Shown here piece by piece: positions 12,731-55,029 of a DNA stretch of 64,000 nt. Within the stretch, counting starts at the first letter, position 1. Each line of letters opens with the position of its first letter. This DNA is from Solirubrobacteraceae bacterium (GTDB lineage Bacteria; Actinomycetota; Thermoleophilia; Solirubrobacterales; Solirubrobacteraceae). A program made the translations under genes and the position numbers. The DNA lies in contig JADGPP010000007.1 in the NCBI GenBank assembly GCA_017882375.1, forward strand, positions 1-64,000, written 5' to 3'. Under the pieces are notes generated by a model that saw only the letters and a program-made list of their open reading frames with translations, ran no database searches and was not told the DNA's origin.

Positions 12731-13522
12731 GTGATCGACCTGCACTGCCACATCCTCGCGGGCATCGACGACGGCCCCGAGACGATGGAGGGCTCGCTGG
12801 CGCTCGCGCGCGCCGCCGCCGCCGCCGGCACGCGCACGATCGTCGCGACCCCGCACGTGAGCTGGCGCTATGGCAACGACTCGGCGACGATCGCGCGGCT
12901 CGTGGCGCAGACGAATGCGGCATTCGCCGACACCGACGTCGGCGTGACCGTGCTGGCTGGCGCGGAGATCGCGATGTCGCGCGCCGCCGACCTCGCCGCG
13001 ACGGAGCTCGCCGCGCTGACGCTCGGCGGCGGGCCTTGGCTGCTGATCGAGTGCCCGTTCACCTCGGTCGCGATCGGGCTGGACGAGCTGATTCTCGAGC
13101 TGGAGGAGGCCGGCCACGGCGTCGTGCTCGCACACCCCGAGCGCAGTCCCGCCTTTCAGCGCGACCCGCAGATGCTGGAGTCGCTGGTGCGCGGCGGCGT
13201 TCTCACGTCGATCACCGCCGGATCGCTGGTCGGGCGGTTCGGCGGCACGGTGAGGCGCTTCGCGCTGGGGCTGATGGAAGCCGAGCTCGTGCACAACGTG
13301 GCATCCGACGCGCACGACCCCGAGCAGCGCCGGCCGGGAATGGCCGACGAGCTGCGCGAGGCCGGCCTGGAGGGGATGACCGAGTGGCTGACCGAGGGCG
13401 TGCCGGCGGCGATCATCGCCGGCGAGGACAGCCTGCCTCCGCGCCCGCGAATCGACTTCGCCAAGGTCGCCGCGCGACGCGACTCGTGGTGGCGGCACGG
13501 CCCGCTCAGGCGAGCTTCGTAA
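12731..13522 (+). CDS. CpsB/CapC-type protein-tyrosine phosphatase (PHP fold)
   Basis: A 263-residue PHP-family metallophosphatase. Metal ligands are visible in H5-C-H7 (MIDLHCHILAGIDDGP), TPH in VATPHVS, GAEI, AHPER and SDAHD near residue 196. This is the manganese-dependent CpsB/YwqE type, which dephosphorylates the tyrosine cluster of Wzz/BY-kinase proteins and so controls polysaccharide export and chain length. The likely partner is the BY-kinase at 28001-29584. The start is GTG. The gene opens the large polysaccharide region. Confidence 0.88.
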   Translation: MIDLHCHILAGIDDGPETMEGSLALARAAAAAGTRTIVATPHVSWRYGNDSATIARLVAQTNAAFADTDVGVTVLAGAEIAMSRAADLAATELAALTLGGGPWLLIECPFTSVAIGLDELILELEEAGHGVVLAHPERSPAFQRDPQMLESLVRGGVLTSITAGSLVGRFGGTVRRFALGLMEAELVHNVASDAHDPEQRRPGMADELREAGLEGMTEWLTEGVPAAIIAGEDSLPPRPRIDFAKVAARRDSWWRHGPLRRAS

Positions 13523-19765: not shown

Positions 19766-20530
19766 ATGCGAACGCTCATGTATCACGACGTAGCGCCGCG
19801 CGCGCAGCGCGAGGCGGTCGGCTTCCCAGGACCGCTCGCGGCGCGCTACAAGCTCGAGCCGGACGCCTTCGAGGCGCACCTCGACGCGCTCGCCGCGACC
19901 GGGCTGCTCGTGCGACCGCTCGACGCCGACGAAGCAGCCCCCGCCACGGCGGTGACCTTTGACGATGGCGGCGCCTCGGCGCCGCTCGCCGCCGCGGCGC
20001 TCGAGCGCCGCGGCTGGCGCGGGCACTTCTTCGTCACCTCTGGGCGCATCGGGACGCCCGGCTTCCTGTCGGCCGACGAGCTGGCGGAGCTCGCTCGACG
20101 CGGGCACCTGATCGGCAGCCACTCGCACACGCATCCGACCTACATGGGCCGGCTCACGCGCGCCGAGCTCGACGAGGAGTGGGCGCGCAGCCGGGCCACG
20201 ATCGGCGAGCTCCTCGGCTCGGCGCCGCGCACGGCGTCGGTGCCCGGCGGCTACCTGTCGGCGGCCGTCATCGCGTCCGCCGCCGCGGCCGGATATGAGC
20301 TGCTCTTCACATCGGAGCCCACCTCGCGCGTCTCTCACCGTGAGCTCATCGTGCGCGGCCGCTACACGATCTGGGCGACGACACCCGCCCGTGTCGCGGC
20401 CTCCTACGCGGAGGGCCGGCGCCTGGCATGCGGACGCCTGTGGCTGGAGTGGAATGCGAAGAAGCTCGCCAAGAGCGCCAGCCCGGCCGCCTACCAGGTG
20501 CTGCGCCGCATACGCGCACGCGGCTCCTGA
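19766..20530 (+). CDS. polysaccharide deacetylase (CE4/NodB fold)
   Basis: 254 residues. NodB motifs: MYHDV (motif-like start), TFDDGG with D66-D67, and HSHTH with H119 and H123 as zinc ligands, then VPGGYLS in place of the usual RxPxG motif. No signal peptide is visible, so it may act on lipid-linked or nucleotide-sugar intermediates in the cytoplasm, or its substrate may lie at the membrane. The second deacetylase is at 22934. Together with the ATP-grasp gene downstream, free amino groups on the glycan are a plausible outcome. Confidence 0.88.
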   Translation: MRTLMYHDVAPRAQREAVGFPGPLAARYKLEPDAFEAHLDALAATGLLVRPLDADEAAPATAVTFDDGGASAPLAAAALERRGWRGHFFVTSGRIGTPGFLSADELAELARRGHLIGSHSHTHPTYMGRLTRAELDEEWARSRATIGELLGSAPRTASVPGGYLSAAVIASAAAAGYELLFTSEPTSRVSHRELIVRGRYTIWATTPARVAASYAEGRRLACGRLWLEWNAKKLAKSASPAAYQVLRRIRARGS

Positions 20531-21739: not shown

Positions 21740-22873
21740 TCAGGCGTCCTCGCCATGCAGCGAGGGCGCGTATACGCCGGCGATGGCTGCCGCCTCGTCG
21801 GTCGGCGGGATGCCGCGCACGAGGCTCGCGAAGCCCGCCGCCGGCGGGCCGAAGCGACACATGCCGGCGAGCGTTCCGAAGCCCCAGCCGAAGTGCATGA
21901 TGGGCAGCACCGCCAGCAGCAGACCCCCCTCGGCGCGCCGGCCCGGGCGCGCCGCGGTGCTCAGGCCCGTGCCGGCCACGGCCAGCAGGTAGACGAGCAC
22001 GGCGAGGCGCGCGGGCGCGCGCAGCGGGCGCGGAGCGAGCAACGCCGCGATCAGCGCGAGCGCCAGCGCGGGAGCGATCAGATGCGAGCGGCGCATGCTC
22101 CCCGGGTGGCGTCGGAAGGTCTGCGCGCGGTAGTAGCCGTAGCGGTAGTACTGGCGGGCCAGTCCCTTCAGCGAGTCGCGCGGAACGTAGTAGCCGGCCA
22201 TCTCCGGCAGGCACACCAGGCGCGCGCCCTGTGCGAGAAAGCGCGAGGCCATCTCGGAGTCCTGGTTGATCGGCCAGCGCTCGTCCCAGCCGCCCGCGTC
22301 GAGCACTCGCCCCCGCCGCCACACGCCGCCGAACACGCCCGTGTCGAGGTCGCGCTCCTCGGCCCCGTCGAGCACGTCGTCCCACTTGCGCGAGCCGCCG
22401 CGGCCCAGCCAGGACGCGAGCGCCATCCCGACCGCGCGCGAGATCGCGCCGACCGGGCGGGGTACGGCCGGACCGCTGACCCACTCTGTGTCGCCGCGCC
22501 GCAGACGCTCCACGCCTGCGGCCAGATAGCGATCGGCGTAATAGGTGTGCGCGTCCATCCGCGCGACGAACTCGCCGCGGGCCTCGCGCAGGCACACGTT
22601 GAGACCGCTCGCGGTGCGCCGCCGCGGGTTGTCGAGCACGCGGATGCGCGGATCGCTCGCCGCGAGCTCGAGCAGGATCTCCCGCGTGCGGTCCTCCGAG
22701 CGCCCGTCCGCGAACAGCAGCTCGAACTGCCCGTCGAAGCGCTGGGCCTGCATCGCGGCGACCGTCTCGCGGATGTGGCGCTCCTCGTTGAAGACGGGCA
22801 CGAGCACGCTGAGGTCCACGCGCTCGTCGGAGCGTGGCGGCGCAGCCGGACTGGATGTCGGGAGAGCGTCCAC
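21740..22873 (-). CDS. membrane glycosyltransferase family 2 (ExoA-like)
   Basis: 377 residues. The GT-A domain (about 20-250) shows SVLVPVFNEERHI, FADGRSEDRT, a DxD-like RMDAHTYY, and a later acidic motif WPINQDSEMASRF. The C-terminal part has about four membrane helices. The architecture is like ExoA of succinoglycan synthesis, which adds a sugar to the lipid-linked chain. It is the first gene of a two-gene minus-strand unit, divergent from a deacetylase. Confidence 0.9.
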   Translation of the reverse strand: MDALPTSSPAAPPRSDERVDLSVLVPVFNEERHIRETVAAMQAQRFDGQFELLFADGRSEDRTREILLELAASDPRIRVLDNPRRRTASGLNVCLREARGEFVARMDAHTYYADRYLAAGVERLRRGDTEWVSGPAVPRPVGAISRAVGMALASWLGRGGSRKWDDVLDGAEERDLDTGVFGGVWRRGRVLDAGGWDERWPINQDSEMASRFLAQGARLVCLPEMAGYYVPRDSLKGLARQYYRYGYYRAQTFRRHPGSMRRSHLIAPALALALIAALLAPRPLRAPARLAVLVYLLAVAGTGLSTAARPGRRAEGGLLLAVLPIMHFGWGFGTLAGMCRFGPPAAGFASLVRGIPPTDEAAAIAGVYAPSLHGEDA

Positions 22874-22933: not shown

Positions 22934-23698
22934 GTGACCAACGCGATCGTCCTCTGCTATCACGCGCTCAGCCCGACATGGGACGCCGACCTCTCGACGA
23001 CGCCCGAGCGCTTCGAGGAGCAGGTCGCGATGCTGGTGCGGCGCGGCTATCGAGGAGTGACGTTCAGCGAAGCGGTGCGCGCCGAGCCTGGCGACAGGAC
23101 ACTCGCAGTCACCTTCGACGACGCGTATCGCTCGGTGCTGGAGCTCGCGCGGCCGATCCTCGATCGCTTCGAGCTCCCGGCGACAGTGTTCGCGCCGACC
23201 GCCGGCATCGACGCCGCGAGACCGCTGAACTGGCCGGGTATCGACCACTGGCACCGCGGGCCGCACGAGACGGAGCTGACGCCGATGTCGTGGGACGAGC
23301 TGCGCATGCTTGCGACCGCCGGCTGGGAGATCGGCTCGCATACGGTCACGCACCCGCGTCTCACGCAGCTCGACGACGCAACGCTGAGCGACGAGCTGAC
23401 GCGCTCGAAAGCCGCCTGTGAGCAGCAGCTCGGGAGCCCGTGCACATCGCTGGCCTATCCGTATGGGGACTTCGACGCACGAGTCGTCGCGGCCACGGCC
23501 GGTGCGGGCTACGGCGCGGCTGCCACCCTCCCGCGGCGGCTGAGCCCGGCCGGAGCGCTTCAGTGGCCCCGGATCGGCGTCTACCGGGCGGACGACGAGC
23601 GTCGCTTCCGCGTGAAGGTCTCGCCGACGGTCCGGCGCCTGCGCCGCTCGGCGCTGTGGCACGCGCTCGAGGCGTCGCGCGGCCTGCTGCGACGCTAG
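22934..23698 (+). CDS. polysaccharide deacetylase (CE4/NodB fold)
   Basis: 254 residues with GTG start. Motifs: CYHALSP, TFDDAY with D62-D63, SHTVTH with H136 and H140 as zinc ligands, and LAYPYGDFD as motif 3. There is no signal peptide. It is similar in length but not closely similar in sequence to the deacetylase at 19766; the DD-H-H metal set is complete in both. It probably removes acetyl groups from amino sugars of the polymer or its precursor. The ATP-grasp/flavoprotein fusion follows on the same strand. Confidence 0.9.
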   Translation: MTNAIVLCYHALSPTWDADLSTTPERFEEQVAMLVRRGYRGVTFSEAVRAEPGDRTLAVTFDDAYRSVLELARPILDRFELPATVFAPTAGIDAARPLNWPGIDHWHRGPHETELTPMSWDELRMLATAGWEIGSHTVTHPRLTQLDDATLSDELTRSKAACEQQLGSPCTSLAYPYGDFDARVVAATAGAGYGAAATLPRRLSPAGALQWPRIGVYRADDERRFRVKVSPTVRRLRRSALWHALEASRGLLRR

Positions 23699-27695: not shown

Positions 27696-28000
27696 CGATG
27701 GCTCGATCTCCGTTGGGGTCGTGGGAGGCTCTGCATCGACCTCACACCGCTCGTCCATGACCGAACCGACGACCACCTCAGTCGAACGTCCAAGTGCCAC
27801 CGGCCGCCGCCTTGCGCCCCGAGCCGGTCGGCCGTGGATGCCGCGCACCGTCGAGCGGGTCGCTGCCAGGCGTGATCGCGCCGGCGGCCTGCGATCTCGG
27901 ACGTGGAGCGCATTGGACGGTGGTCCATGCCCTCATCGCCGCGCCGGAATAGCCGCTACCGTTGTCGAGATGCGCCGCCGCCCGCCCGCCCGAGCCAGCC
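27696..28000. promoter_or_regulatory. divergent control region of the beta-helix and Wzz genes
   Basis: 305 bp between divergent genes and without a credible ORF. It contains an operator-like inverted repeat, TGGAC (27914-27918), four bases, then GTCCA (27923-27927), flanked by GCA and TGC. This lies about 75 bp before the Wzz start and could be the binding site of a regulator of the export genes. No good sigma-70 boxes stand out. Confidence 0.35.
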
Positions 28001-29584
28001 ATGCAACGACCTAGCGATCCGGCGCGCGCGCCGGACTGGCTGGCGCCGCAGGGGCCTCGCGAAGGCCTCGGTCATTACGTCGAGATCGTCCGCGATCGTC
28101 GCAAGCTGATCGTCGCGTGCGTGCTGATCGTGACGATCGTGGCGGGCGCATATGCAAAGCTGGCGTCGCCCTCCTACAAGGCCGAATCGCATCTGCTCGT
28201 GACACCCGTCAACGGTGAAACGAGCCTCATCGGCCTCGGCCTGATCACCAACTCGGGCAACCCCACGGGAGACGTGTCAACGGCGGCGAGCCTGGTGACG
28301 ACGTCCGAAGTCGCGGCGCTGGTTGCGGCAAAGGTCGGCCACACAACCGGGCGAGTCGTGCTCGGACAGGTCAGCGCGGTGCCGGTCGCGCAGAGCAACG
28401 TGGTCGCGGTCACGGCCACGGCGTCGAGCGCCAAGCGTGCGCAGACGGTCGCCAACGCCTTCGCGCTGGCGACCGTCGAGAACCGTACTCGTGTACTCCA
28501 CCGTCAGCTCGAGTCGATAATCCCGACGCTCAAGCGACAGGTGGAAGCGCTCCCGGTGACCCAGCGAACGGGGCAGGGCTCACTCGGCGAACGGCTGTCG
28601 TCGCTGCAGACGCTGCTGGCCGGCCCCGATCCGACGATCTCCGTCGAGTCGCTCGCGCAGCGCCCGCAGTCGCCGTCGTGGCCGAAAACTAAGCTCAGCG
28701 TCATCGCGGGCTTTCTGATCGGGCTCGTCATCGGCCTGGGCGGCGCGTTCGCGCTGGAGAGTCTCGACCCACGCGTGCGCCGCGAGGAGACGCTGCGGCG
28801 CATCTTCCGCCTGCCCGTGCTCGCGCGCATCCCGCGCGAGCGCCGGCCCGCGTCGCGCAAGCTGCCGATGCGCCCGGGCGAACTCTCACCGGCCGCGCAG
28901 GAGAGCTACCGCATGCTGCGCGTCGCACTGGGCGCGCGCGGCCACACCGACGGAACGCGCTCGATGATGATCACCGGCTCGACGCGCTCGGAGGGCAAGT
29001 CGACGGTGGCGCTCAACCTCGCCGCCACGCTTGCCTTCTCCGGCCACAAGGTGATCCTCGTGGAGGCCGACCTGCAGCGTCCGTCGCTTGCCGGAGCCCT
29101 CGACCTGCTGGCAAAGCGCGGCAAACGCGGCACCGCCGGCGTCCTGATGGGCGAAATCTCGCTGCGCGATGCGCTCGTGCCGGTCAAGCGCCTGAGCGAC
29201 AACCTGAGCGTGCTGCTCGTCGAGCAGTCGGCTCCCTATCTGGCCGACGGCCTGCTCGCCGCGAGCGACGAGATCGTCGAGCAGGCCCGGGCGCTCGCCG
29301 ACTATGTGATCTTCGACGCGCCGCCCGTGACCGAGGTCAGCGACGCGCTGCCGCTGAGCCAGCACGTCGACGACGTGCTGATCGTCGCGCGCCTCGGATA
29401 CAGCCGCACCGATCAGCTCGTGAACCTGGGCGAAGTCCTCTCGCGCCAGGGGGTTCGTCCTTCGGGCCTGGTGATCGTCAGCGACGACTACAACCAGGGA
29501 AGCGGTTACTACGCTGCCACTCCCTCATCGCCCGGCAGGCTCGGAGCGAGGGTACGCGAGCAGATCCCCGCAATCGGAGCGTAG
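28001..29584 (+). CDS. Wzz-type chain-length regulator fused to BY-kinase
   Basis: 527 residues. The Wzz part has a first membrane helix at about 36-52 and a second at about 228-248, followed by the cytoplasmic tyrosine autokinase. Walker A is G326-STRSEGK333-ST, Walker A' is VILVEAD357, and Walker B is VIFD439. The tail holds a tyrosine group (DDYNQGSGYY), the probable autophosphorylation cluster. Such proteins control polymer length and export with a CpsB phosphatase (candidate at 12731). The ATG at 28001 is preferred to a TTG at 27962. It is followed after 7 bp by a polymerase, with which it forms an operon. Confidence 0.93.
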   Translation: MQRPSDPARAPDWLAPQGPREGLGHYVEIVRDRRKLIVACVLIVTIVAGAYAKLASPSYKAESHLLVTPVNGETSLIGLGLITNSGNPTGDVSTAASLVTTSEVAALVAAKVGHTTGRVVLGQVSAVPVAQSNVVAVTATASSAKRAQTVANAFALATVENRTRVLHRQLESIIPTLKRQVEALPVTQRTGQGSLGERLSSLQTLLAGPDPTISVESLAQRPQSPSWPKTKLSVIAGFLIGLVIGLGGAFALESLDPRVRREETLRRIFRLPVLARIPRERRPASRKLPMRPGELSPAAQESYRMLRVALGARGHTDGTRSMMITGSTRSEGKSTVALNLAATLAFSGHKVILVEADLQRPSLAGALDLLAKRGKRGTAGVLMGEISLRDALVPVKRLSDNLSVLLVEQSAPYLADGLLAASDEIVEQARALADYVIFDAPPVTEVSDALPLSQHVDDVLIVARLGYSRTDQLVNLGEVLSRQGVRPSGLVIVSDDYNQGSGYYAATPSSPGRLGARVREQIPAIGA

Positions 29585-29591
29585 GGCCGAC

Positions 29592-31010
29592 ATGAACGCC
29601 CGGGGGCGCGCGTTCGAGCTGCTCCCGTCGACGATCTTCGCGACGGCGGCGATCATCGGTGTGCTCGCCGCTCTGCAGCCCGTGGTCGCGGTCGCGGCCG
29701 CGGCCGGGGTGATCGTCGCCTACGTCGTGTTCAACGACCTCGCGATGGGCTTCGCGGTGCTCGCGTTCCTCAGCTTCCTGGACACGCTGTCATCGGGCTC
29801 TCTGAGCCCGGCGAAGGGCGTCGGGTTGCTGCTCGTGGTGGCGTGGCTGGGCCACTTCAGCGTGGGCGGGCGCGGCCAGCGCGACTTCTTCGCCGAGCAC
29901 TCGCACCTCACGTGGGTGCTGATCGCCTTTATCGGATGGGGCACCGTGTCGTTGCTGTGGGCCACGCAGCTCGGCCCGGGGCTCGCGTCGCTGTCGCGAT
30001 ACGCGCCCAACATGCTGCTGCTGCCGATCGCTTATACGGCGATGCGCACGCGTCGCGACCTGGCGCTCGTGCTCGGCGCGATCGTGCTCGGCGCGATCGT
30101 CGCCGCCAGCTTCGGGATCCTGCAGCCGGCCGATCCCACGGAAGTGGTCGAAGGCTCCCGTGCTACCGGTACGATCGGCGATCCGAACGAACTCGCGGCC
30201 GTGCTGCTCGTCGGTCTCGCGCTTGGCGCCGGCTTCTTGGTCGGGCGAGGGCGCTCTCCGTTGATGCGGCTCGCTGCGGCACTGGCGGTGCCACTCTGCG
30301 CCGCGGGGGTCTTTCTCAGCCTGTCGCGTGGAGGACTGGTGGCGCTGGGGGCGCTTCTGATCGCCGGCACGGTCTTCGCCGGCCGCTGGCGGCTGGCGAT
30401 CACGGCGATGCTCGTAGCGGTGGCCGTCGGCGGGATCGTGTACTTCACCGAGCTCGCGCCGCTTCCCGCCCGCGAACGGGTGACCAGCGCGAACGGCGGG
30501 TCGGGACGAACAGATCTGTGGACGGTCGGCTGGCGGATGGTGCAGGCGCATCCGGTCACCGGCGTCGGTATCGGCAACTTCCCGGCCGTCTCGGCGAACT
30601 ATGTCCTGCAGCCCGGGGCGACTCAGCGAGCCGACCTGATCTTCTCGAGCGCTCCGAAGGTCACGCACAACACCTACCTGGAGGTGATGGCCGAGATGGG
30701 AGTTCCCGGTCTCCTGCTGTTCGTGGCCGCGATCGTCACGTGCATGGGCTGCGCGTTGAAGGCCGCACGCATCTGGGCGCGGCGCGGGCAGGCGAGCGCG
30801 GAGGCGCTCGCCCGCAGCGTGTTCCTGGGGCTGGTCGGAATGCTGTCGGCCGACTTCTTCATCTCCGACATGTTCAGCAAGCTGCTGTGGGTGATGCTCG
30901 CCCTCGGCCCGGCGATGCTCGCGATCGCTCGTTCCGAGAGCGAGGAGCAACCGCTCAAAGCGTCGGCCGGCCAATCGCCCGAGGCGTCGGCCACCGTCGC
31001 GTCGAGCTGA
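29592..31010 (+). CDS. O-antigen ligase/Wzy-type polymerase
   Basis: 472 residues with about 11-12 membrane helices. The Wzy_C loop is recognisable: SGRTDLWTVGWRMVQAHPVTGVGIGNFPAVSANYV, then THNTYLEVMAEMGVPGLLLF. It is encoded directly behind the Wzz/BY-kinase, which makes it the best candidate for the polymerase controlled by that protein. It converges with a GT4 gene with only 8 bp between the stops. Confidence 0.92.
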   Translation: MNARGRAFELLPSTIFATAAIIGVLAALQPVVAVAAAAGVIVAYVVFNDLAMGFAVLAFLSFLDTLSSGSLSPAKGVGLLLVVAWLGHFSVGGRGQRDFFAEHSHLTWVLIAFIGWGTVSLLWATQLGPGLASLSRYAPNMLLLPIAYTAMRTRRDLALVLGAIVLGAIVAASFGILQPADPTEVVEGSRATGTIGDPNELAAVLLVGLALGAGFLVGRGRSPLMRLAAALAVPLCAAGVFLSLSRGGLVALGALLIAGTVFAGRWRLAITAMLVAVAVGGIVYFTELAPLPARERVTSANGGSGRTDLWTVGWRMVQAHPVTGVGIGNFPAVSANYVLQPGATQRADLIFSSAPKVTHNTYLEVMAEMGVPGLLLFVAAIVTCMGCALKAARIWARRGQASAEALARSVFLGLVGMLSADFFISDMFSKLLWVMLALGPAMLAIARSESEEQPLKASAGQSPEASATVASS

Positions 31011-31018
31011 GCGCGCCT

Positions 31019-32134
31019 TCAGAGGAGCTCCTCGTAGATCGCGCAGACCCGCTCGCACCAGATGTCGAGCGCAAAGTGCTCCAGCAGCCAATTGCGGTCC
31101 TCGGCTCCCGCAGCTGCCCGCACCTCGGGGGATTCGGCGAGCAGCTGCTCGAGCCTGACGGCCAAGGCGCGGTGATCCTCGCTAGGGAAGGTCAGGATGT
31201 GTGGCGCAGCGCCCCAGCCCGCGGTACCGTGGATGTCGGACATCACGACGGGCAGGCCGCAGGCGAGCGCCTCGCCGATCGCGGATGATTGGCCCTCGTG
31301 GCGCGAGGCGCTCACGAAGATGTCGGCGGCTGCGAACAGCCAGGCGGAGTCGCTGACGAAGCTCGAGGTGCGCAGCCAGGGCGGTCGCGTGGGCAGCCGC
31401 TGCGCCAGGAACGACCGCATCTGCTCCTCCCCCACGAGCAGCGCGTTTATCGCCGGATGACGATCGGCGACGAGCTGTAGCGCGTCGACGAGCACGTCGA
31501 CGCCCTTCACGTCGGGCCACCATCCCATGCAGAGGACGACATCGGCGTCGGCGTCCAGCCCAAAGCGCTCGCGTGCCGCGCCACGATCGGGCGGCTGCGC
31601 GAAGCGCTCGATGACGATCGCGTCCGGAACCGTCTCGATCCGCTCGCGCGGGGCCCCGCGCCGGACGGCGAACTCAGCCAACCAGGGCGACACCGCAATG
31701 ATACGCGCGACTCGCCGGCGCGCCACGATCCGCATCTTGAGCAGGTCCTTGGCCCGCTGAGCCAGCGGATAGCCGTTGAAGCCCGTGCGGATGTGCCAGA
31801 CGCACGGCACCCCGATCGCAGCAGCGGCGCTCGAAGCGACCCGGTCGGCAACCGTGAAATGCGAATGCACGAGCATGGCGCCGTGCTCGTGCACGACGGC
31901 GTCTAGATGCGCACGGTGGGCACGGCGCCGTGCTGGCAGGACCGACCACGTGACACCGGCGGCGTCGAGCTCGGCCAGCCACGGCTGGTCCTCCGCGCCG
32001 TGCTCCAGGACGAAATGCGTGCCCAGGCCGAAGCGTGCCCGAACGGCACCTGCGAGCACGAGCTCGCTCGACATGAAGTTGCCGAGGTAGGGGCTGTTCC
32101 AGAGCGTCACCTGCACCACCGAGCGCTCGGTCAT
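31019..32134 (-). CDS. glycosyltransferase family 4 (GT-B)
   Basis: 371 residues. The N-terminal half has VHSHFTVADRVASSAAAAIGVPCVWHIRTGFNGYP; the C-terminal half has VVLCMGWWPDVKGVDVLVDAL and the donor-binding SRHEGQSSAIGEALACGLPVVMSD with the conserved acidic pair. It is probably cytoplasmic and adds a sugar to the lipid-linked chain. It is the last gene of a minus-strand run (36096 down to 31019) containing another GT4, the GINT1-like protein and a beta-helix protein. Confidence 0.9.
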   Translation of the reverse strand: MTERSVVQVTLWNSPYLGNFMSSELVLAGAVRARFGLGTHFVLEHGAEDQPWLAELDAAGVTWSVLPARRRAHRAHLDAVVHEHGAMLVHSHFTVADRVASSAAAAIGVPCVWHIRTGFNGYPLAQRAKDLLKMRIVARRRVARIIAVSPWLAEFAVRRGAPRERIETVPDAIVIERFAQPPDRGAARERFGLDADADVVLCMGWWPDVKGVDVLVDALQLVADRHPAINALLVGEEQMRSFLAQRLPTRPPWLRTSSFVSDSAWLFAAADIFVSASRHEGQSSAIGEALACGLPVVMSDIHGTAGWGAAPHILTFPSEDHRALAVRLEQLLAESPEVRAAAGAEDRNWLLEHFALDIWCERVCAIYEELL

Positions 32135-33343: not shown

Positions 33344-34903
33344 CTATCGTGCCGAGCGCCGCTTCGCGCGCCTGGCGCTCTGAGCGAGATCGCTTGTGAG
33401 CTGCGCCAGGCGCAAGCTGCCGCGCAGCTCCCGTCGGCGCATGTCGATGGCCTCGAAGCGTCCGTCGGAGGAGTAGGAATGCGTTGCTCGAGCGCCGCCG
33501 ACGTCGGCAGGCTCGAGGCGGGCGATCTCGTGCTCGGCGTACTCCGTGCTGCTCAGCACGTCGATCTCGCGGAACGAGATCGCCCAGCCGTAGCGACGGC
33601 TGCCGTCCTGGCCCGGACGCACCAGCCGTGAGCCGAAGCGCAGGATCGCGCCGGCGGGTCGCGCCCCGCGTACGTCCGACACGACGGGATTGCTTGGATG
33701 CGGATGCCACCTCCCCGCAGGCGTGTCGGCCCAGAAGAGATGCAGCTCGTCAAGCGAGCTCGCGTGCGGGGCGGCTATCCCAACGAACAGCCACAGGCGA
33801 TCGCCATGAGCGAGCAACGTGGCATCGGCGGCCTCCACGTCGTCGAGCATGATCGCCTCGCGCCGCCAGGTCTTCGGGAAGTCGACCGCGCGGTAGAGCT
33901 CCACACGCGACACTGCCGAGGTCTCGGGGATCATGAAGACCTCGTCGCCGTGTGTGAAGAGGAATGGATAGCTGAGGTGGTAGGGCTGTGCCAGAACAGT
34001 CCTCGGCGGGTCCGCCGGACCGCCTTCGGGGCGGAGCTCTGTATGCGAGATCACCGCGCGCTTGGCGCCGAGCGGAACCTCCTCGCAGAAGAGGTGATGG
34101 CCCCCGGCGTGCTCGAACAGGAACGGGTCTGCGTAGAGATGGCCGGGCATCCAACGCACCAGATCGGTGTCGCTGGACCAGCCCTGCGTGAGCTGCGGCC
34201 CGCGCTGGCGTACTCGAATCGACCACGGCCGGCGAAACAGCAGCCGCACCGCCAGCACGCGCATCCACGTCAACGCCGCGTGCACCAGCAACGCCGCAGT
34301 CGAGGGAGCCGGCGCGGCCGGCTGCGACTCGGGCGCGGGAAGATCCAGACCGGGCACACGCTCGGCCGCGCGCCGAATGAGCGCTGCGAGCTTCCACAGC
34401 GCGAGGTCGCAACTCAGGATGGCCGAGAACTGGCGTACCCCGGACACGGTCCGCTCGACGACCACGCTGCCGCCGGAGCGACGCAGAAGGACCTCGGACT
34501 CCACGCAAGCAGCGCCGCTCAGGACCGCACGAGCGAACGCGTCTTCGGCCGGCTCGTGCACTCCTCCATGGCGGACGTACAGGACCTCGCGGTCCTCATC
34601 CCCGGGCATGGGACGCTCCGACAGCCAGACAACCAGCGTCGCCGGCCGAGGGCCGGCGCCCCGGTCGAGCTCCGATCGGTCGACCGGCGCCGGGGAAAGG
34701 GCGTCCGCGCCCAGGTGGAGCAGGCGGCGCTCGGCGGCGGCGTGCAGGCGGCGAGCGATGCCGCGGCGTCGGGGTCCCGCCAGGCGTATCTCGACGACGT
34801 CCAGCTCGGGGGACTCGAGCAGCCCCGACAGCGCCCGCTCCTGCCAAGCTGGCGCGGGCGCGCCGTCGAGGACCACCGCGATCGCACGACGGGCGCCGCT
34901 CAC
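33344..34903 (-). CDS. GINT1-like propeller protein with formyltransferase-like N-terminus
   Basis: 519 residues. The C-terminal about 300 residues form a five-bladed propeller resembling GH43 proteins and the N-terminal domain of plant glucosamine inositolphosphorylceramide transferase: PGHLYADPFLFEHAGGHHLFCEEV, HLSYPFLFTHGDEVFMIPETS, LWLFVGIA, DELHLFWAD, and HPSNPVVSDVRGARPAG. The N-terminal about 180 residues look like the formyltransferase-like domain found in the bacterial homologues. The start is GTG, overlapping the TGA of the upstream glycosyltransferase (GTGA), so translation is coupled. The role in bacteria is unknown; glycan binding or modification is likely. Confidence 0.72.
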   Translation of the reverse strand: MSGARRAIAVVLDGAPAPAWQERALSGLLESPELDVVEIRLAGPRRRGIARRLHAAAERRLLHLGADALSPAPVDRSELDRGAGPRPATLVVWLSERPMPGDEDREVLYVRHGGVHEPAEDAFARAVLSGAACVESEVLLRRSGGSVVVERTVSGVRQFSAILSCDLALWKLAALIRRAAERVPGLDLPAPESQPAAPAPSTAALLVHAALTWMRVLAVRLLFRRPWSIRVRQRGPQLTQGWSSDTDLVRWMPGHLYADPFLFEHAGGHHLFCEEVPLGAKRAVISHTELRPEGGPADPPRTVLAQPYHLSYPFLFTHGDEVFMIPETSAVSRVELYRAVDFPKTWRREAIMLDDVEAADATLLAHGDRLWLFVGIAAPHASSLDELHLFWADTPAGRWHPHPSNPVVSDVRGARPAGAILRFGSRLVRPGQDGSRRYGWAISFREIDVLSSTEYAEHEIARLEPADVGGARATHSYSSDGRFEAIDMRRRELRGSLRLAQLTSDLAQSARRAKRRSAR

Positions 34904-36096
34904 GCGTGCTTTCTCGCGCGCTCTGCGAGCAGCTCCAGGTAGAGATGCTCGAGTCGGCGGACGAGCACGTCGATGTCGAACTCGGCACGCCGGCGCTGCC
35001 GCCCCCGCTCTCCCATCGCCCGCGCACCGTGCGGATCGCCCAGCAGCGTGGCGAGCGCCTCGGCGAGCGCGGCTGGATCGCTCGGGGGCACGAGCAGGCC
35101 GTGCACGCCCGGCTCGATCAAATCCGGCAGTCCTCCGACCTCGGTCGCGACGACGGGCAGGGCGGCGTCCATGTACTCCATCACGGCGAGCGGGCTCCCC
35201 TCGAAGTCCGAGCAACACACGGCGATGTCGAGTGCGCAGAGCACGTCGGGCACGTCTGTGCGCGAGCCCAGAAAGCGGACGGTGTCCTGCAGGCCGAGCT
35301 CGGCGGTCAGTCGCTCCAGGCTCGCTCGTTCGGGCCCGTCGCCAACGATCAGCACGTGGACCTCCGGCCAACTCTCAACGAGCAGAGCGGCCGCGCGCAG
35401 GAGCACGTGATGGGCCTTTTGCGGACGCAGCACGCCAACCACTCCGATCACCGCGGCGCCCGGGCGGATGCCCAGCTCCGCGCGAACGTCGCGCCCGCTC
35501 GGCGCCGGCAGGGAATGCACGCCGTTTGGGATGAACAGCGTGCGGCGGGGATCGATGTGCTCGATCTCGATCATCCGGCGCTGATCCTCACGGGAGACGG
35601 CGATAAAGCGATCGGCGCCGCGCGCAACGACCTCGCGATCGAGGAAGCGACGCAGCGGCTTGCCTTCAAAGGACCACGTGTGCTCGTGGGCGAGCACGAC
35701 CGGGACCCGCGCGAGCCTGCCGAGCAGCGTCCCCCACACGTTGGCACCGAACTTGTGCGCATGCAGCACATCGATGCGCTCCCGCCGCAGGTAACGCACG
35801 AGCCGTGCCCACACCCATACGTCGACCTTGCCTCGCCGGCGAAGGCCAAACAGCCGCACGCCGCTCGCGGACAGCTGCTCGAGCGCTGCGCCGGCCGCCG
35901 TGCTGGGCGGCCCGGGAGGCGGCCAACGACTGACGCACAGGGTGGACTCAAAGCGCGCTGGGTCAAGACGCGTCGCGACGCTCAGCGCGAGCCCCTCGGC
36001 GCCGCCATCGGTCCCCATGAAGTCGATCAGCGTCAGGACGCGCACGCGCCGCGGATGCGGACCGAAGGACGATGGTCGATCCATGTCGGGCAGCAT
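34900..36096 (-). CDS. glycosyltransferase family 4 (GT-B)
   Basis: 398 residues from ATG 36096 (ATG 36084 is an alternative). It shows a complete GT4 layout: TDGGAEGLALSVA acceptor-side glycine loop, DVLHAHKFGANVWG, VLAHEHTWSFEG, VVGVLRPQKAHHVLLRAAALL, LIVGDGPERASLERL and CCSDFEGSPLAVMEYMDAALPVVATEVGG. It is the first gene of its minus-strand unit, divergent from the C5-epimerase gene with about 50 bp between starts, so the two may share control. Confidence 0.92.
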   Translation of the reverse strand: MLPDMDRPSSFGPHPRRVRVLTLIDFMGTDGGAEGLALSVATRLDPARFESTLCVSRWPPPGPPSTAAGAALEQLSASGVRLFGLRRRGKVDVWVWARLVRYLRRERIDVLHAHKFGANVWGTLLGRLARVPVVLAHEHTWSFEGKPLRRFLDREVVARGADRFIAVSREDQRRMIEIEHIDPRRTLFIPNGVHSLPAPSGRDVRAELGIRPGAAVIGVVGVLRPQKAHHVLLRAAALLVESWPEVHVLIVGDGPERASLERLTAELGLQDTVRFLGSRTDVPDVLCALDIAVCCSDFEGSPLAVMEYMDAALPVVATEVGGLPDLIEPGVHGLLVPPSDPAALAEALATLLGDPHGARAMGERGRQRRRAEFDIDVLVRRLEHLYLELLAERARKHA

Positions 36097-36147
36097 GCTA
36101 GGGCCATTGGCCGACGCCGCAACGTCGGCGGTCGTCGCTACGCTCGG

Positions 36148-37179
36148 ATGGTGGACGACCAGGCAAAGGACTCCTCGCCGCGCAAACGGTCGCAGGCGAG
36201 CTTCTTCTCGAGCGTGGCCAGCTTCTCGCTCCCCGCCGGAGCCCATGTCACCCCGGGAGCCGTGCGCGGCTACTACATCGACATGGGGATCAAGGCCGAG
36301 ACGCCCGAATGGCCGCCGCCGGGGATGCCCCCGGCGGAGCTGAGGCTGCGCGTCGCGACGATCCAGTGGGCGCTCGGCGCCTACGAGCACTATCTCGCCG
36401 GCGAGGGTGAGGCGTGGCTGGCCGCCGCCGTGAGCTGCGCCGAGGAGCTGCTCGACGAACAGCAGACCTCGGGAGCGCTCGTCGGCGGCTGGGTACATGC
36501 GCGGCCCTTCCCCCACACCTTCCCGCTGCGCCCGCCGTGGTTGTCGGCGATGTCGCAGGGAGAGGGAGCGAGCCTGTTGGTGCGCCTGTATGCCGAGACC
36601 GGGGAGGAGCGCTATGCAGAGGCCGCGCGGCGGGCCCTGCTCCCATTGCGGCTGGACGCCTCCGACGGAGGCGTGCGAGCGACCCTCGACGGGCGATCCT
36701 TCCCCGAGGAGTACCCGACGAGCCCGCCGTCGTTCGTGTTGAACGGCGGAATGTTCGCGATCTGGGGACTGCACGACGTCGGCGTCGGGCTCGCCGAGCC
36801 TCAGGCTCTGGCCGATTTCGAGCAGGCAGTTGACACGCTCGCCGCCAACCTGCACCGCTGGGACCTCGGCTACTGGTCACGCTATGACCTGTTCCCCCAC
36901 CCGGTACCGAACGTCGCGAGCTCCTTCTACCACGACCTGCACATCAAGCAGCTGCGGATGACGCACCTGCTCGCCCCGCGCCAGGAGCTGGCGGAGGGCG
37001 CCGAGCGCTGGGCCGCATATACGAGCTCGCCCTTCGACCGACGACGCGCCTTTGCCGGCAAGGCGCTCTTTCGCCTGGTCGTCCCGCGCAATCGCGAACT
37101 CGCGCGGCGGTTGCCGTGGTCGGCGATCGACGGCAGCGAAGAGGCGCAGGTGGCGCGTACACCGCGCGGCGCCCGGTGA
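36148..37179 (+). CDS. D-glucuronyl C5-epimerase-like protein
   Basis: 343 residues matching the C-terminal catalytic domain of D-glucuronyl C5-epimerase, an (alpha/alpha) barrel which converts D-glucuronate to L-iduronate within a polymer. Visible family features are YYIDMG near 45, RVATIQWALGAYEHYLAGEG, PLRPPWLSAMSQGEGASLLVRLYAET, the Tyr/Pro-rich EEYPTSPPSFVLNGGMFAIWGLHDVG, and LGYWSRYDLFP with SFYHDLHIKQLR, which carry the Tyr and Arg residues of the active site. No signal peptide is seen. A bacterial member in a polysaccharide cluster with a UDP-sugar dehydrogenase suggests iduronate in the product. Confidence 0.85.
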   Translation: MVDDQAKDSSPRKRSQASFFSSVASFSLPAGAHVTPGAVRGYYIDMGIKAETPEWPPPGMPPAELRLRVATIQWALGAYEHYLAGEGEAWLAAAVSCAEELLDEQQTSGALVGGWVHARPFPHTFPLRPPWLSAMSQGEGASLLVRLYAETGEERYAEAARRALLPLRLDASDGGVRATLDGRSFPEEYPTSPPSFVLNGGMFAIWGLHDVGVGLAEPQALADFEQAVDTLAANLHRWDLGYWSRYDLFPHPVPNVASSFYHDLHIKQLRMTHLLAPRQELAEGAERWAAYTSSPFDRRRAFAGKALFRLVVPRNRELARRLPWSAIDGSEEAQVARTPRGAR

Positions 37180-37180
37180 T

Positions 37181-38047
37181 TCAGCTTGCGCCTTGCTGCG
37201 CGCGTTGCCCCGCCGGCATCTTGCGCGCTATCGCGAACACCCGCTGGCCGTCGTCGGCCATGCCGAACAGCGCCTGACGGTCATCGCCGGCGCGCAGGAA
37301 CTGCTCGAAGCCCCAGTTGTGGTCGACGTCGTCAACGACCACCACGCCCCCGGGGCTCAGCGCGTTCCAGGCCGTCGTCAGCTCCCAGCGAACGTTGCGC
37401 GTCGAGTGCAGGCTGTCGTGGCAGAAGATCTCGATCTGGCCCAGCTGGCGCAGGAGGGGAGACAGGCGGCGCCGGCTGGCGCCCTCGAGGTATGTCCAGC
37501 GCTCGCGCAGCGCTTGGGGTACGGCCGCCCCCACCTCGACTCGACGCTCGGGAATCGTCATCGGAGGCAGGTCGATGCTCCACAGGCGGCCGTCCCCGGC
37601 GCGTTTGAGCGCTTCGAGCATGATGCGGCTGCTCAGCCCGTGCGCGACGCCCGTCTCGACCACGTGGTCGGGGCGCAGATGGCACACCAGGCACCACAGC
37701 GCACGTGCCAGGCCGGGGTCGGCGTCGTCGTCGCCACCGAAGTTTTCGCGGCCCACGCGCAGTCCGTGCTCGGCCATCGTCGCAGTGGCCGAATCCCAAG
37801 CCGGCGCGAACGCAGTGGCGTCCGGGCAAGGCCACGGAGCGCCGATCAGCTCATGCAGGCGACGCTCCCAGTCACCGTCAGCCTCAGCCTGATTGTTCGG
37901 CAGCCGCCCACCGCGCACAGCTCGCTCCCAGCGACGGGCGCACTTCTCCATCACCTTCTGCACGCTCTCGCCCGGATCGGAGATCGCCCCCTTCATGGCC
38001 CGCGCAATGTAGGTTCCGCGCGACGGCGCGATCGAATCTCTGCTCAT
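37181..38047 (-). CDS. class I SAM-dependent methyltransferase
   Basis: 288 residues from ATG 38047 (an upstream start at 38122 would overlap the divergent promoter). Rossmann motif I appears as VVETGVAHGLSSRIML, the acidic residue after strand 2 as WSIDLPP, and the later GGVVVVDDVDHNWGFEQFL resembles the Methyltransf_24 type found in sugar and glycan methylases. It probably O-methylates a polymer or precursor. Its stop is one base from that of the convergent C5-epimerase gene. Confidence 0.85.
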   Translation of the reverse strand: MSRDSIAPSRGTYIARAMKGAISDPGESVQKVMEKCARRWERAVRGGRLPNNQAEADGDWERRLHELIGAPWPCPDATAFAPAWDSATATMAEHGLRVGRENFGGDDDADPGLARALWCLVCHLRPDHVVETGVAHGLSSRIMLEALKRAGDGRLWSIDLPPMTIPERRVEVGAAVPQALRERWTYLEGASRRRLSPLLRQLGQIEIFCHDSLHSTRNVRWELTTAWNALSPGGVVVVDDVDHNWGFEQFLRAGDDRQALFGMADDGQRVFAIARKMPAGQRAQQGAS

Positions 38048-38120: not shown

Positions 38121-38870
38121 ATGACCGATCACGCCGAGCTGGCCCGCTTCTACGAGGACGCCTACTCGCAAGACCCAGCCCAGGCGGCAGTCTACGCCCG
38201 CTGGCGAGCGCTCGGCGCGATCGGTAAGGCCGACCACGTGATCGCGCTGTGCGCGCGCGCCGGAGTCCGCCCGGCGAGCACGCTCGAGGTGGGCTGCGGC
38301 GACGGCGCGCTGCTGTGCGAGCTTCAGCGACGCGGCTTCGGCGGGCGGCTGTCGGGCGTGGAGATCACCGAGGCGGCCGTGGCGATCGCGCGCGAGCGCC
38401 CGCAGATCGATGCGGTGGCTCTGTATGACGGACTGCATCTGCGAGACGCCGACGACGCGCACGAGCTGGGCATCCTCTCGCACGTGCTCGAGCACGTCCC
38501 CGACCCCTCGGCGCTGCTCGCGGAGGTCGCGCGCGCCTGCCGCGCGGTGCTCGTGGAGGTCCCGCTGGAGGCCAACCTGTCAGCGCGGCGATCGGGCAAG
38601 CGCGAGCACGCCGCCGAGGTCGGGCACCTGCAGCGACTCGACCGCGCCGCCACGCGAGGAATCGTCGAGCGCGCTGGCCTGCAGATCGCCTGCGAGCTGG
38701 AGGATCCGCTGCCGCTGAGCGTGCAGCGCTTCTTTGCCGCCACGCGCGCGGCGCGCATGGCGGGCACCGCCAAGTGGGCGCTGCGAGCCGGACTTCACCG
38801 CCTCGCGCCGTCGCTGGCTCGGCGGCTGTTCACGGTGCACTACGCGTGCCTGTGCCGGCCGGCCGCGTAG
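38121..38870 (+). CDS. class I SAM-dependent methyltransferase
   Basis: 249 residues. Motif I is LEVGCGDGALLCELQ, followed by GVEITEAAVAIA and the characteristic SHVLEHVPDPSALLAEVARAC, with a Tyr/Pro-type motif replaced by LVEVPLEANL. It is a Methyltransf_11/12-like protein and is likely to act on a nucleotide sugar or glycan. It starts at ATG 38121 and is divergent from the previous methyltransferase with about 70 bp between starts. Its 3' end overlaps the remnant of a tetR gene on the other strand. Confidence 0.85.
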   Translation: MTDHAELARFYEDAYSQDPAQAAVYARWRALGAIGKADHVIALCARAGVRPASTLEVGCGDGALLCELQRRGFGGRLSGVEITEAAVAIARERPQIDAVALYDGLHLRDADDAHELGILSHVLEHVPDPSALLAEVARACRAVLVEVPLEANLSARRSGKREHAAEVGHLQRLDRAATRGIVERAGLQIACELEDPLPLSVQRFFAATRAARMAGTAKWALRAGLHRLAPSLARRLFTVHYACLCRPAA

Positions 38871-39255: not shown

Positions 39256-39776
<521 letters not shown>

Positions 39777-53778: not shown

Positions 53779-55029
53779 CTAGAGCCGGACGACGCTGGCG
53801 ACACCGGAGGAGCGCGTGACGCCGCGCAGGTCGACGACCAACCGCGCGCGCTGGGCGATCTGGTCGTGGTCGACGCTCGGATGGGCGGTCACGATCAAGG
53901 TCAGATCGGCGTCGTTGACCGCCTCGTCGAGTGGCCGGCTGCTGAGGCCGAACTCCGTGAGCGTCGGCACGTGCGGGTCGTGGTAGCAGACGTCCGCGCC
54001 GAGCTCTTTGAGCAGCGAGATGATCTTCAGCGCAGGCGACTCGCGGATGTCGCCGACGCCGGGCTTGTAGCTGACGCCGAGCACCGCCACGCGTGCTCCT
54101 TTGACCGACAGCCCGGCGCTGTTGAGCGCACGCTGGGCCTTCTCGACGCAGTGATAGGGCATCTGCTGGTTGACCTTGCCGGCGAGCTCGATGAACTCCG
54201 TGGACATGTCGAACTCGCGCGCGCGCCAGCTGAGGTAGAAGGGGTCGACGGGCAGGCAGTGGCCGCCCATGCCCGGTCCCGGTGAGAAGGGCATGAACCC
54301 GTAGGGCTTGGTCGATGCCGCATCGACGACCTCCCAGATGTCGATGCCCATGCGGTCGGTGAGCATCGCCAGCTCGTTGACCAGCGCGATGTTGACCGAG
54401 CGGAAGATGTTCTCCAGGAGCTTGGTCAGCTCGGCGGCCTCGGGGCTGGAGACGCGTACGAGCTCTTCGCAGACCAGGCCGTAGATCTCCTCGGCGCGCT
54501 GCACGCACGCCTCGGTCAGCCCGCCGAGCACCTTCGGCGTGTTGCGCAGCGTGAAGTCGGTGCGCCCGGGGTCGACTCGCTCGGGCGAGAACGCCAGGTG
54601 GAAGTCGCGCCCAGCCGCCAAGCCGGACTCCTCGAGCAGCGGCGCCACGCGCTCGCGCGTCGTGCCGGGGTAGGTGGTCGACTCGAGCACCACGAGCTGG
54701 TTGGGCTGCAGCACCTCGGCGAGCGACTGCGCGGTATCGATCAGCGGTCCGAGATCTGGCTCGCGGTTTCGCGTCAGCGGCGTCGGCACGCAGATCAGCA
54801 CGGCGTCGGCTTTTGCCAGGCGCGCGTAGCGCGTCGTCGCCTGGATGCGGTCTTTGAACTGCGTGAGCAGCTGCGAGGGCACGTCCTCGATGTAGGAGTC
54901 GCCCGCCTCGATCGCCTCGATCTTGCGCGGGTCGACGTCGACGGCGATCACGTCGCAGCCCTCCTGTGCGAACGCCACAGCGAGCGGCAGGCCGACGTAG
55001 CCCAGCCCGATGATCCCGACTGTCGTCAT
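53779..55029 (-). CDS. nucleotide-sugar dehydrogenase (UDP-Glc/UDP-GlcNAc type)
   Basis: 416 residues. N-terminal GLGYVGLPLAVAFAQEG (NAD-binding), VPTPLT, ESTTYPGTT, FSPERVDPG, the conserved K203 in ELTKLLEN, and the catalytic C258 in GPGMGGHCLPVDPFYLSW, followed by GVSYKPGVGDIRESPAL. The FSPERVDPG and GGHCLPVDP forms are typical of the WbpA/Cap5L (UDP-HexNAc) branch, so UDP-GlcNAc or UDP-ManNAc may be the substrate rather than UDP-glucose; both give a uronate. It is relevant to the C5-epimerase at 36148. Confidence 0.93.
   Translation of the reverse strand: MTTVGIIGLGYVGLPLAVAFAQEGCDVIAVDVDPRKIEAIEAGDSYIEDVPSQLLTQFKDRIQATTRYARLAKADAVLICVPTPLTRNREPDLGPLIDTAQSLAEVLQPNQLVVLESTTYPGTTRERVAPLLEESGLAAGRDFHLAFSPERVDPGRTDFTLRNTPKVLGGLTEACVQRAEEIYGLVCEELVRVSSPEAAELTKLLENIFRSVNIALVNELAMLTDRMGIDIWEVVDAASTKPYGFMPFSPGPGMGGHCLPVDPFYLSWRAREFDMSTEFIELAGKVNQQMPYHCVEKAQRALNSAGLSVKGARVAVLGVSYKPGVGDIRESPALKIISLLKELGADVCYHDPHVPTLTEFGLSSRPLDEAVNDADLTLIVTAHPSVDHDQIAQRARLVVDLRGVTRSSGVASVVRL

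What the first reader, a model, noticed from the sequence alone, without database searches (positions are those of the whole stretch)
36148..37179. Possible iduronate-containing polysaccharide: C5-epimerase, exostosin and UDP-sugar dehydrogenase in one cluster
D-glucuronyl C5-epimerases are known chiefly from heparan sulfate synthesis and are uncommon in bacteria. Here one sits among glycosyltransferases with a GT47 exostosin (40015), a uronate-forming dehydrogenase (53779), two deacetylases that could make free aminosugars, and methyltransferases. Together this resembles the chemistry of a glycosaminoglycan-like polymer built by a Wzx/Wzy route.
Basis: partly seen in the sequence, partly recalled or inferred. 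Interest (0 to 1): 0.75.

Follow-up and report, generated by a model that had tools for sequence, protein, structure and literature searches.

The report
Heparin-type sugar epimerase in soil-bacterium capsule locus
A soil actinobacterium carries, inside a conserved capsule-building gene cluster, a convincing relative of the animal enzyme that makes iduronic acid in heparin, and in related bacteria it is paired with (once fused to) a sugar deacetylase, so these bacteria may make a heparin-like sugar unit inside the cell before export; no chemistry has been shown.

Summary
The gene at 36148-37179 (+) encodes a real D-glucuronyl C5-epimerase homologue. It scores 140.8 bits against Pfam C5-epim_C (cut-off 23.3), and all five catalytic residues of human GLCE are present. 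The confident model (pLDDT 88.5) has GLCE as its only hits below E=1e-3 (rmsd 2.1 A). It lies in a Wzx/Wzy capsule locus of a Solirubrobacterales-type actinobacterium, conserved in relatives: divergent GT4, epimerase, CE4/NodB deacetylase, Wzz-kinase, Wzy, beta-helix protein, WcaJ. In eight relatives the deacetylase is the next gene or, in one 612-aa ORF, fused to the epimerase; some loci also hold sulfotransferases. Neither enzyme has a signal peptide, so I infer action on the lipid-linked repeat in the cytosol before flipping, unlike animal heparin enzymes.

The exostosin GT47 has no counterpart in related loci. The dehydrogenase at 53779 is of the UDP-N-acetyl-hexosamine type in a neighbouring locus; the UDP-glucose dehydrogenase is on another contig. 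The Pfam family is common in this order as a separate, mostly secreted class, and bacterial GLCE homologues were known (Bermanella). New variant of a known kind: enzyme strongly supported; iduronate and a GAG-like polymer plausible but unproven.

The parts
36148..37179 (+). C5-epimerase (GLCE-like, capsule class), 343 aa, no signal peptide; catalytic motifs EEYPTSPPSFVLNG, SRYDL, FYHDLH
   Evidence: PF06662 140.8 bits; phmmer to 6hzz 1.4e-23; AF2 pLDDT 88.5; Foldseek only GLCE below 1e-3; hydropathy
22934..23698 (+). PDA2: CE4/NodB polysaccharide deacetylase without signal peptide, orthologue of the deacetylase adjacent or fused to the epimerase in relatives
   Evidence: PF01522 88.3 bits; motifs TFDD60 and HTVTH136; 46-56% identity to orthologues; fusion P0007
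34900..36084 (-). GT4c glycosyltransferase, divergent neighbour of the epimerase, conserved in most related loci
   Evidence: translation P0002; phmmer to orthologues beside the epimerase; GT4-type PDB relatives
27962..29584 (+). Wzz chain-length determinant fused to BY-kinase-like ATPase
   Evidence: PF02706, PF13614; conserved in related loci
29592..31010 (+). Wzy-type polymerase (Wzy_C), conserved in related loci
   Evidence: PF04932 75.3 bits
43853..45403 (-). Wzx-type flippase
   Evidence: PF13440 188.9 bits; orthologues next to epimerase-deacetylase in L069, L070, L072, L073
14994..16409 (-). WcaJ-like initiating sugar-phosphate transferase
   Evidence: PF02397; TIGR03025 over cut-off, TIGR03023 just below
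12731..13522 (+). CpsB/CapC-like phosphatase
   Evidence: PF19567
17368..19395 (-). Second Wzy_C / ligase-like membrane protein, conserved in related loci
   Evidence: PF04932
20580..21737 (-). GT4a glycosyltransferase, conserved in related loci
   Evidence: PF00534; 47-58% identity orthologues
21740..22819 (-). GT2a glycosyltransferase, conserved in some related loci
   Evidence: PF00535
32151..33221 (-). NosD2: right-handed beta-helix protein with N-terminal hydrophobic signal, lyase/epimerase-like fold
   Evidence: PF13229/PF05048; AF2 pLDDT 81.9; Foldseek Pel9A, PL6, chondroitinase B, RbmB, AlgG/AlgE4 at 10-15% identity
26304..27524 (-). NosD1: paralogous beta-helix protein
   Evidence: PF13229/PF05048; A3 alignment 47% identity to NosD2
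19778..20530 (+). PDA1: second CE4 deacetylase, motifs intact
   Evidence: PF01522 72.3 bits; TFDD60, HSHTH115
31019..32134 (-). GT4b glycosyltransferase
   Evidence: PF13692
33344..34876 (-). GINT1_N domain protein, no counterpart in related epimerase loci
   Evidence: PF24793 115.8 bits; no hits
37181..38047 (-). Methyltransf_24/CmcI-like methyltransferase, not conserved in related loci
   Evidence: PF13578; no hits
38121..38870 (+). Methyltransf_23-type methyltransferase
   Evidence: PF13489
40015..40998 (+). GT47 exostosin-family protein; genome-specific, not part of the conserved module
   Evidence: PF03016 74.3 bits; EXT1/EXT2 E about 1e-5; over cut-off in 1 of 81 relatives; absent from related loci
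53779..55029 (-). UDP-HexNAc-type 6-dehydrogenase of the neighbouring locus; not the UDP-Glc dehydrogenase

Best explanation
The protein is a cytosolic uronosyl C5-epimerase of the GLCE fold that works in a Wzx/Wzy capsule pathway. Proposed order of events: WcaJ starts an undecaprenyl-linked repeat unit; glycosyltransferases, including the divergently encoded GT4c, build it with a GlcA residue and an N-acetylhexosamine; the CE4 deacetylase PDA2 frees the amino group; the epimerase inverts C5 of GlcA to give L-IdoA, by abstracting and re-adding the C5 proton with the conserved Tyr/Glu residues; Wzx flips the unit, Wzy polymerises it, Wzz sets its length, and the secreted beta-helix proteins trim or further modify the polymer. 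Shown: fold, catalytic residues, conserved locus, deacetylase pairing and one fusion, absence of signal peptides, availability of a UDP-Glc dehydrogenase. Inferred: GlcA as substrate, order of steps, action before flipping, presence of IdoA in the product.
For: Pfam and phmmer matches. Conserved GLCE catalytic residues, which PMC13308652 lists as E499/Y500/N510/Y560/Y578: all present in the window protein; N199, Y246, Y261 and H265 invariant in 26 sequences spanning four phyla. The AF2 model matches only GLCE below E=1e-3, 2.1 A over 213 columns. Conserved capsule locus in relatives. Epimerase immediately followed by the CE4 deacetylase in seven distinct loci and fused to it in L065:9908-11746. 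All 8 genomes with the capsule-class epimerase also carry the deacetylase subfamily, against 12 of 73 without (Fisher p=3.9e-6; 3.9e-5 at the strict threshold). No signal peptide in 26 epimerases, while four of six examined proteins of the other class show an N-terminal hydrophobic segment. UDP-Glc 6-dehydrogenase in 7 of 8 epimerase genomes.
Against: Only the helical catalytic domain of GLCE is present, so animal substrate specificity cannot be carried over. No uronic-acid dehydrogenase of the UDP-Glc type lies in the window. In the window the deacetylase is 13 kb from the epimerase rather than adjacent. The deacetylase subfamily also occurs without the epimerase. No polymer has been analysed. 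The archaeal enzyme Agl32 shows that GlcA C5-epimerisation is also done by proteins without the GLCE residues (PMC13308652), so fold and reaction do not map one to one.
Confidence: 0.6

Rival explanations
1. The enzyme epimerises an amino-uronic acid rather than GlcA, for example GlcNAcA or 2,3-diamino uronic acid residues to the L-gulo/L-ido forms. The UDP-HexNAc dehydrogenase, aminotransferase and hexapeptide acetyltransferase at 51956-55029 would supply the precursor.
For: UDP-HexNAc-type dehydrogenase in the window with a DegT aminotransferase related to WbpE and a hexapeptide acetyltransferase; homologues of this dehydrogenase (50-63% identity) sit in the epimerase loci L075, L076, L080 and L084. 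That some bacterial O-antigens contain L-gulo amino-uronic acids is my own background knowledge.
Against: In the 15 closest named epimerase loci (L060-L074) neither dehydrogenase type lies within the fetched flanks. In the window the dehydrogenase belongs to a neighbouring locus. The GLCE active site that is conserved here handles GlcA, and a UDP-Glc dehydrogenase is present in 7 of 8 epimerase genomes.
Confidence: 0.2
2. The product is truly heparin-like: alternating hexosamine and uronic acid, N-deacetylated, C5-epimerised and sulfated, with sulfotransferases acting in trans in this genome.
For: Sulfotransferases lie in the epimerase loci L064, L069, L072 and L073. The own genome has 12 PF13469 matches, an APS kinase on the same contig as most of them, and a sulfotransferase 9-10 kb from the second epimerase copy.
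Against: No sulfotransferase in the window. Two epimerase genomes (G061, G074) have none at all, and the genome-level association is not significant (p=0.29). Nothing shows a disaccharide backbone; there are many glycosyltransferases in the locus.
Confidence: 0.15
3. The protein kept the GLCE fold but does something else, such as isomerising another sugar or acting as a lyase or hydrolase-like enzyme.
For: The alpha-barrel fold is shared with AGE-type epimerases, GH76 mannanases and unsaturated glucuronyl hydrolases (weaker Foldseek hits). Distant family members lose the Y500 equivalent.
Against: All five GLCE catalytic residues are present here and no other fold family reaches E=1e-3.
Confidence: 0.1
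4. One reading: GT47 exostosin makes the backbone with GlcA supplied by the 53779 dehydrogenase, as in heparan sulfate.
For: GT47 matches EXT1/EXT2 weakly (E about 1e-5).
Against: GT47 is absent from all related epimerase loci and passes the family cut-off only in this genome of 81. The dehydrogenase is UDP-HexNAc type in a different locus.
Confidence: 0.05

Closest known systems
Animal heparan sulfate D-glucuronyl C5-epimerase (GLCE; PDB 6HZZ, 6I01, 4PW2, 4PXQ)
   Same: Homologous catalytic helical domain (31-32% identity, rmsd 2.1 A over 213 columns) and the five catalytic residues.
   Different: Lacks the N-terminal beta domains of GLCE; no signal peptide or membrane anchor; encoded in a Wzx/Wzy capsule locus; substrate unknown.
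Bermanella marisrubri RED65_08024, the one characterised bacterial D-glucuronyl C5-epimerase (Raedts 2013, as cited in PMC13308652 and PMC4432689)
   Same: Bacterial GLCE homologue; precedent that such enzymes convert GlcA to IdoA in vitro.
Halobacterium salinarum Agl32 (archaeal D-glucuronyl C5-epimerase)
   Same: Works like the mechanism proposed here: acts on a short glycan rather than a long polymer (PMC13308652).
   Different: Does not share the GLCE catalytic residues; not a member of the same family.
Heparan sulfate N-deacetylase domain of NDST1
   Same: Metal-dependent deacetylase with Asp-His-His triad acting on GlcNAc, upstream of epimerisation (PMC10864358); PDA2 carries the CE4 Asp and His-xxx-His motifs.
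   Different: PDA2 is a single-domain CE4/NodB protein without sulfotransferase domain; relationship to NDST1 not tested.
Mannuronan C5-epimerases AlgG/AlgE
   Same: Uronic acid C5 inversion in a bacterial polysaccharide pathway; the locus also has beta-helix proteins with this general fold.
   Different: The epimerase here is alpha-helical GLCE type, not beta-helix; the beta-helix proteins match AlgG only at fold level (10-15% identity).

Membership tests
D-glucuronyl C5-epimerase family (GLCE / PF06662) | Sequence match to the C5-epim_C catalytic domain over the curated cut-off | tested here: met
   140.8 bits against 23.3
D-glucuronyl C5-epimerase family (GLCE / PF06662) | Catalytic residues E499, Y500, N510, Y560, Y578 | tested here: met
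   All five aligned to identical residues (list from PMC13308652)
D-glucuronyl C5-epimerase family (GLCE / PF06662) | GLCE helical-domain fold | tested here: met
   AF2 pLDDT 88.5; only GLCE below E=1e-3
D-glucuronyl C5-epimerase family (GLCE / PF06662) | Converts GlcA to IdoA in a glycan | not testable with these tools
   Needs purified protein
Animal-type GLCE | Additional N-terminal beta domains used for dimerisation and signal anchor | tested here: not met
   343 aa, model covers the helical domain only; no hydrophobic N-terminus
Wzx/Wzy-dependent capsule pathway | Initiating transferase, flippase, polymerase and chain-length regulator in the locus | tested here: met
   WcaJ 14994, Wzx 43853, Wzy_C 29592, Wzz 27962
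Glycosaminoglycan-type biosynthesis (heparan sulfate-like) | N-deacetylase acting with the epimerase | tested here: inconclusive
   CE4 deacetylase adjacent or fused in relatives, motifs intact; substrate unknown
Glycosaminoglycan-type biosynthesis (heparan sulfate-like) | Sulfotransferases in the pathway | tested here: not met
   None in the window; present in four related loci and elsewhere in the own genome
Glycosaminoglycan-type biosynthesis (heparan sulfate-like) | Alternating hexosamine-uronic acid backbone | not testable with these tools
   Needs polymer analysis
UDP-glucose 6-dehydrogenase (for the gene at 53779) | Closest to UDP-Glc dehydrogenases, GFGGSCFPKD active site | tested here: not met
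   Motif GPGMGGHCLPVDP; UDP-HexNAc class scores higher; the true one is L038:3206-4519

The most novel reading that the evidence does not exclude
A bacterial heparin-type modification pair, C5-epimerase plus CE4 N-deacetylase and in one species a single fused protein, acts in the cytosol on an undecaprenyl-linked repeat unit and gives an iduronate- and free-amine-containing, in some species sulfated, GAG-like capsule in soil actinobacteria.
Probability: 0.2. Interest if true: 0.8.

Novelty: new variant of a known kind. Interest (0 to 1): 0.52.

Why it matters
Iduronic acid in bacterial polymers has been reported chemically only a few times, and one bacterial GLCE-type enzyme is characterised, with an unknown natural substrate. 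A conserved locus that ties a GLCE-type epimerase to a deacetylase and a complete export pathway gives a defined place to test how bacteria make iduronate, whether inversion can happen before polymerisation, and whether heparin-like chemistry arose outside animals. A cytosolic enzyme active on short acceptors, or an epimerase-deacetylase fusion, would also be useful for enzymatic heparin synthesis. A cultured carrier of the epimerase, Actinopolymorpha rutila DSM 18448 (L085), makes a sugar analysis practical.

Tried and rejected
- Exostosin as part of the module: rejected, no homologue in any related epimerase locus and over the cut-off in only 1 of 81 genomes.
- The 53779 dehydrogenase as UDP-GlcA supplier: rejected on class and locus.
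- Sulfation as a fixed part of the system: rejected at genome level (p=0.29; two epimerase genomes without any sulfotransferase). It remains possible in L064, L069, L072 and L073.
- The long open frame 34906-37179 as one 757-aa protein: rejected; the upstream part overlaps GT4c on the other strand, and homologues start near the same Met as 36148.
- Genome-contig search with the single protein gave nothing; the alignment A1 gave 31 loci.
- The Raedts 2011 and 2013 papers are not held; they are cited only through PMC13308652 and PMC4432689.
- NosD2 against PDB by sequence: no hit; the fold search gave only generic beta-helix lyases and epimerases, so its activity is left open.
- Several loci are the same contigs fetched twice (L042=L060, L043=L067, L045=L062, L039=L072, L041=L073); they were counted once.

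Full report
WHAT WAS CHECKED. The ORF at 36148-37179 (+) is real: 343 aa, Pfam C5-epim_C at 140.8 bits with a cut-off of 23.3. Against the PDB it finds only D-glucuronyl C5-epimerases, E=1.4e-23 for human GLCE. In that alignment the catalytic residues of human GLCE, listed as E499, Y500, N510, Y560 and Y578 in PMC13308652, all fall on identical residues (EEYPTSPPSFVLNG, SRYDL, FYHDLH). A 26-sequence alignment keeps N199, Y246, Y261 and H265 invariant from Actinomycetota to Bacteroidota, Bacillota and Calditrichota. The AlphaFold2 model has mean pLDDT 88.5; of all PDB chains only eight fall below E=1e-3, all GLCE, with 2.1-2.2 A rmsd over about 213 columns and 31-32% identity.

SETTING. The window is contig C167 (69.9 kb) of a 3.57 Mb draft genome, 95.9% complete. 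Around the epimerase the window has a complete Wzx/Wzy-type set: WcaJ-like initiator 14994, Wzy_C proteins 17368 and 29592, Wzz-kinase 27962, Wzx 43853, CpsB 12731, several GT2/GT4 glycosyltransferases, two CE4 deacetylases with intact motifs, and two beta-helix proteins. Gene calls are from my own codon-usage script, checked by Pfam.

CONSERVED MODULE. Regions around the epimerase in relatives were fetched and compared. A capsule locus with GT4a, Wzz-kinase, Wzy2, GT4c, epimerase, PDA2, Wzx or beta-helix, WcaJ and CpsB recurs. GT4c is usually the divergent neighbour of the epimerase, as in the window. Counting each genome once, the CE4 deacetylase PDA2 is the next gene in L060, L061, L067, L069, L070, L072 and L073. 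In L065 (contig coverage 91x by its title) a single 612-aa ORF holds both domains, with TFDDGY and HTCSHP motifs intact (P0007). In the window PDA2 is 13 kb away in the same locus. Across 81 related genomes all 8 with the capsule-class epimerase have the deacetylase subfamily, against 12 of 73 without (Fisher p=3.9e-6; 7 of 8 against 10 of 73 and p=3.9e-5 at E<=1e-80). These genomes are related, so the p-values overstate independence.

TWO CLASSES OF THE FAMILY. PF06662 is found in 66 of 81 relatives, so the family itself is ordinary in this order. The tree separates a longer class (100/100) from the capsule class; four of the six proteins of that class examined show a clear N-terminal hydrophobic segment, as expected of secreted proteins. 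The capsule class is rare: 9 of 397 actinobacterial genomes at E<=1e-30. None of 26 capsule-class epimerases has a signal or membrane segment, and PDA2 has none either. From this I infer that both act in the cytosol, on nucleotide- or lipid-linked sugars before Wzx, unlike the animal enzymes, which work on the growing or finished chain in the Golgi (established knowledge).

WHAT FAILED. GT47 at 40015 resembles EXT1/EXT2 weakly (E about 1e-5), but no related epimerase locus has it, and it exceeds the family cut-off in only this genome of 81. The dehydrogenase at 53779 is a UDP-HexNAc 6-dehydrogenase by score, best PDB relatives and motif, and lies in the adjoining locus with WecG, a GDP-mannose dehydratase, aminotransferase, acetyltransferase and its own GTs, Wzy and WcaJ. 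A TuaD-like UDP-Glc 6-dehydrogenase with GFGGSCFPKD is at G000:C150, and 7 of 8 epimerase genomes have one, so GlcA supply is plausible. The methyltransferase next to the epimerase and the GINT1_N protein are also not conserved.

SULFATION. Sulfotransferases (PF13469/PF00685) lie in the epimerase locus of L064, L069, L072 and L073. The own genome has 12 PF13469 matches, most in an array on C56 whose contig also holds an APS kinase; the adjoining large and small ORFs look like CysNC/CysD (the naming is from size, order and the APS kinase match, not a separate test). Another sulfotransferase lies near the second epimerase copy on C108 in a further capsule locus. But G061 and G074 have the epimerase and no sulfotransferase, and the association over genomes is not significant (p=0.29). 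Sulfation is thus an option, not a defining step.

HOW IT MOST LIKELY WORKS. A lipid-linked repeat unit containing GlcA and an N-acetylhexosamine is built in the cytosol; PDA2 frees the amine; the epimerase inverts C5 of GlcA to IdoA; Wzx, Wzy and Wzz export and polymerise; beta-helix proteins, whose fold is nearest to Pel9A, PL6, chondroitinase B, RbmB and AlgG/AlgE4 at 10-15% identity, act outside. Fold, residues, locus, pairing and fusion are shown; substrate, order and product are inferred. The main rival is an amino-uronic acid substrate, suggested by UDP-HexNAc dehydrogenases in L075, L076, L080, L084 and next to the window locus.

PRIOR ART AND NOVELTY. GLCE homologues in prokaryotes are known; one bacterial enzyme (Bermanella) has shown activity with an unknown natural target, and a 2015 review states that sulfation had not been seen in prokaryotic GAGs (PMC4432689; PMC13308652). 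The archaeal Agl32 acts on a short glycan but lacks the GLCE residues. Literature searches found no description of a conserved actinobacterial locus pairing this epimerase with a deacetylase, within an open-licence library only. I rate it a new variant of a known kind.

Noticed in passing
G000 contig C56 (L101, L116, L117): A contig with an APS kinase domain ORF, an array of about seven sulfotransferases, several GT4 genes, an Asn-synthase-like ORF, a Wzz-kinase-like gene and a WcaJ-like gene: looks like a dedicated sulfated-polysaccharide locus.
   Followed up: partly
G000 contig C108, L036:11192-12175: Second capsule-class epimerase in another capsule locus (WecB, sulfotransferase, Wzx, AsnB, AT3-SGNH acyltransferase, Wzy) of lower GC (61.7% against 70.8%); the residue at the Y500 position is Ala (EEAPGAP).
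   Followed up: partly
L037:7569-9098, L049:7449-8993, L050:9347-10876: Longer, probably secreted class of C5-epim_C proteins, near-universal in the order, keeping the same catalytic motifs and with a C-terminal extension; role unknown.
   Followed up: partly
window 39265-39715, minus strand: Frame-shifted remnant about 80% identical to the intact deaminase-like (TadA-type) gene at 6068-6532 (tblastn E=5e-49).
   Followed up: partly
G053:C1:637137-639026 and G069:C70:4077-6788: UDP-Glc dehydrogenase reading frames split by an in-frame insertion at about residue 250-265, beside the catalytic Cys; could be an intein.
   Followed up: no
window 33344-34876: Bacterial protein with a GINT1_N domain, known from a plant glucosamine inositolphosphorylceramide transferase.
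   Followed up: no
window 42508-43827: Protein joining a ribonucleotide-reductase-small-chain-like domain to an SCP2 domain, next to a TetR regulator, inside the capsule region.
   Followed up: no
G062:C36:34319-35071: Deacetylase of the PDA2 subfamily with an internal TGA stop, on the same contig as the epimerase about 39 kb away.
   Followed up: no
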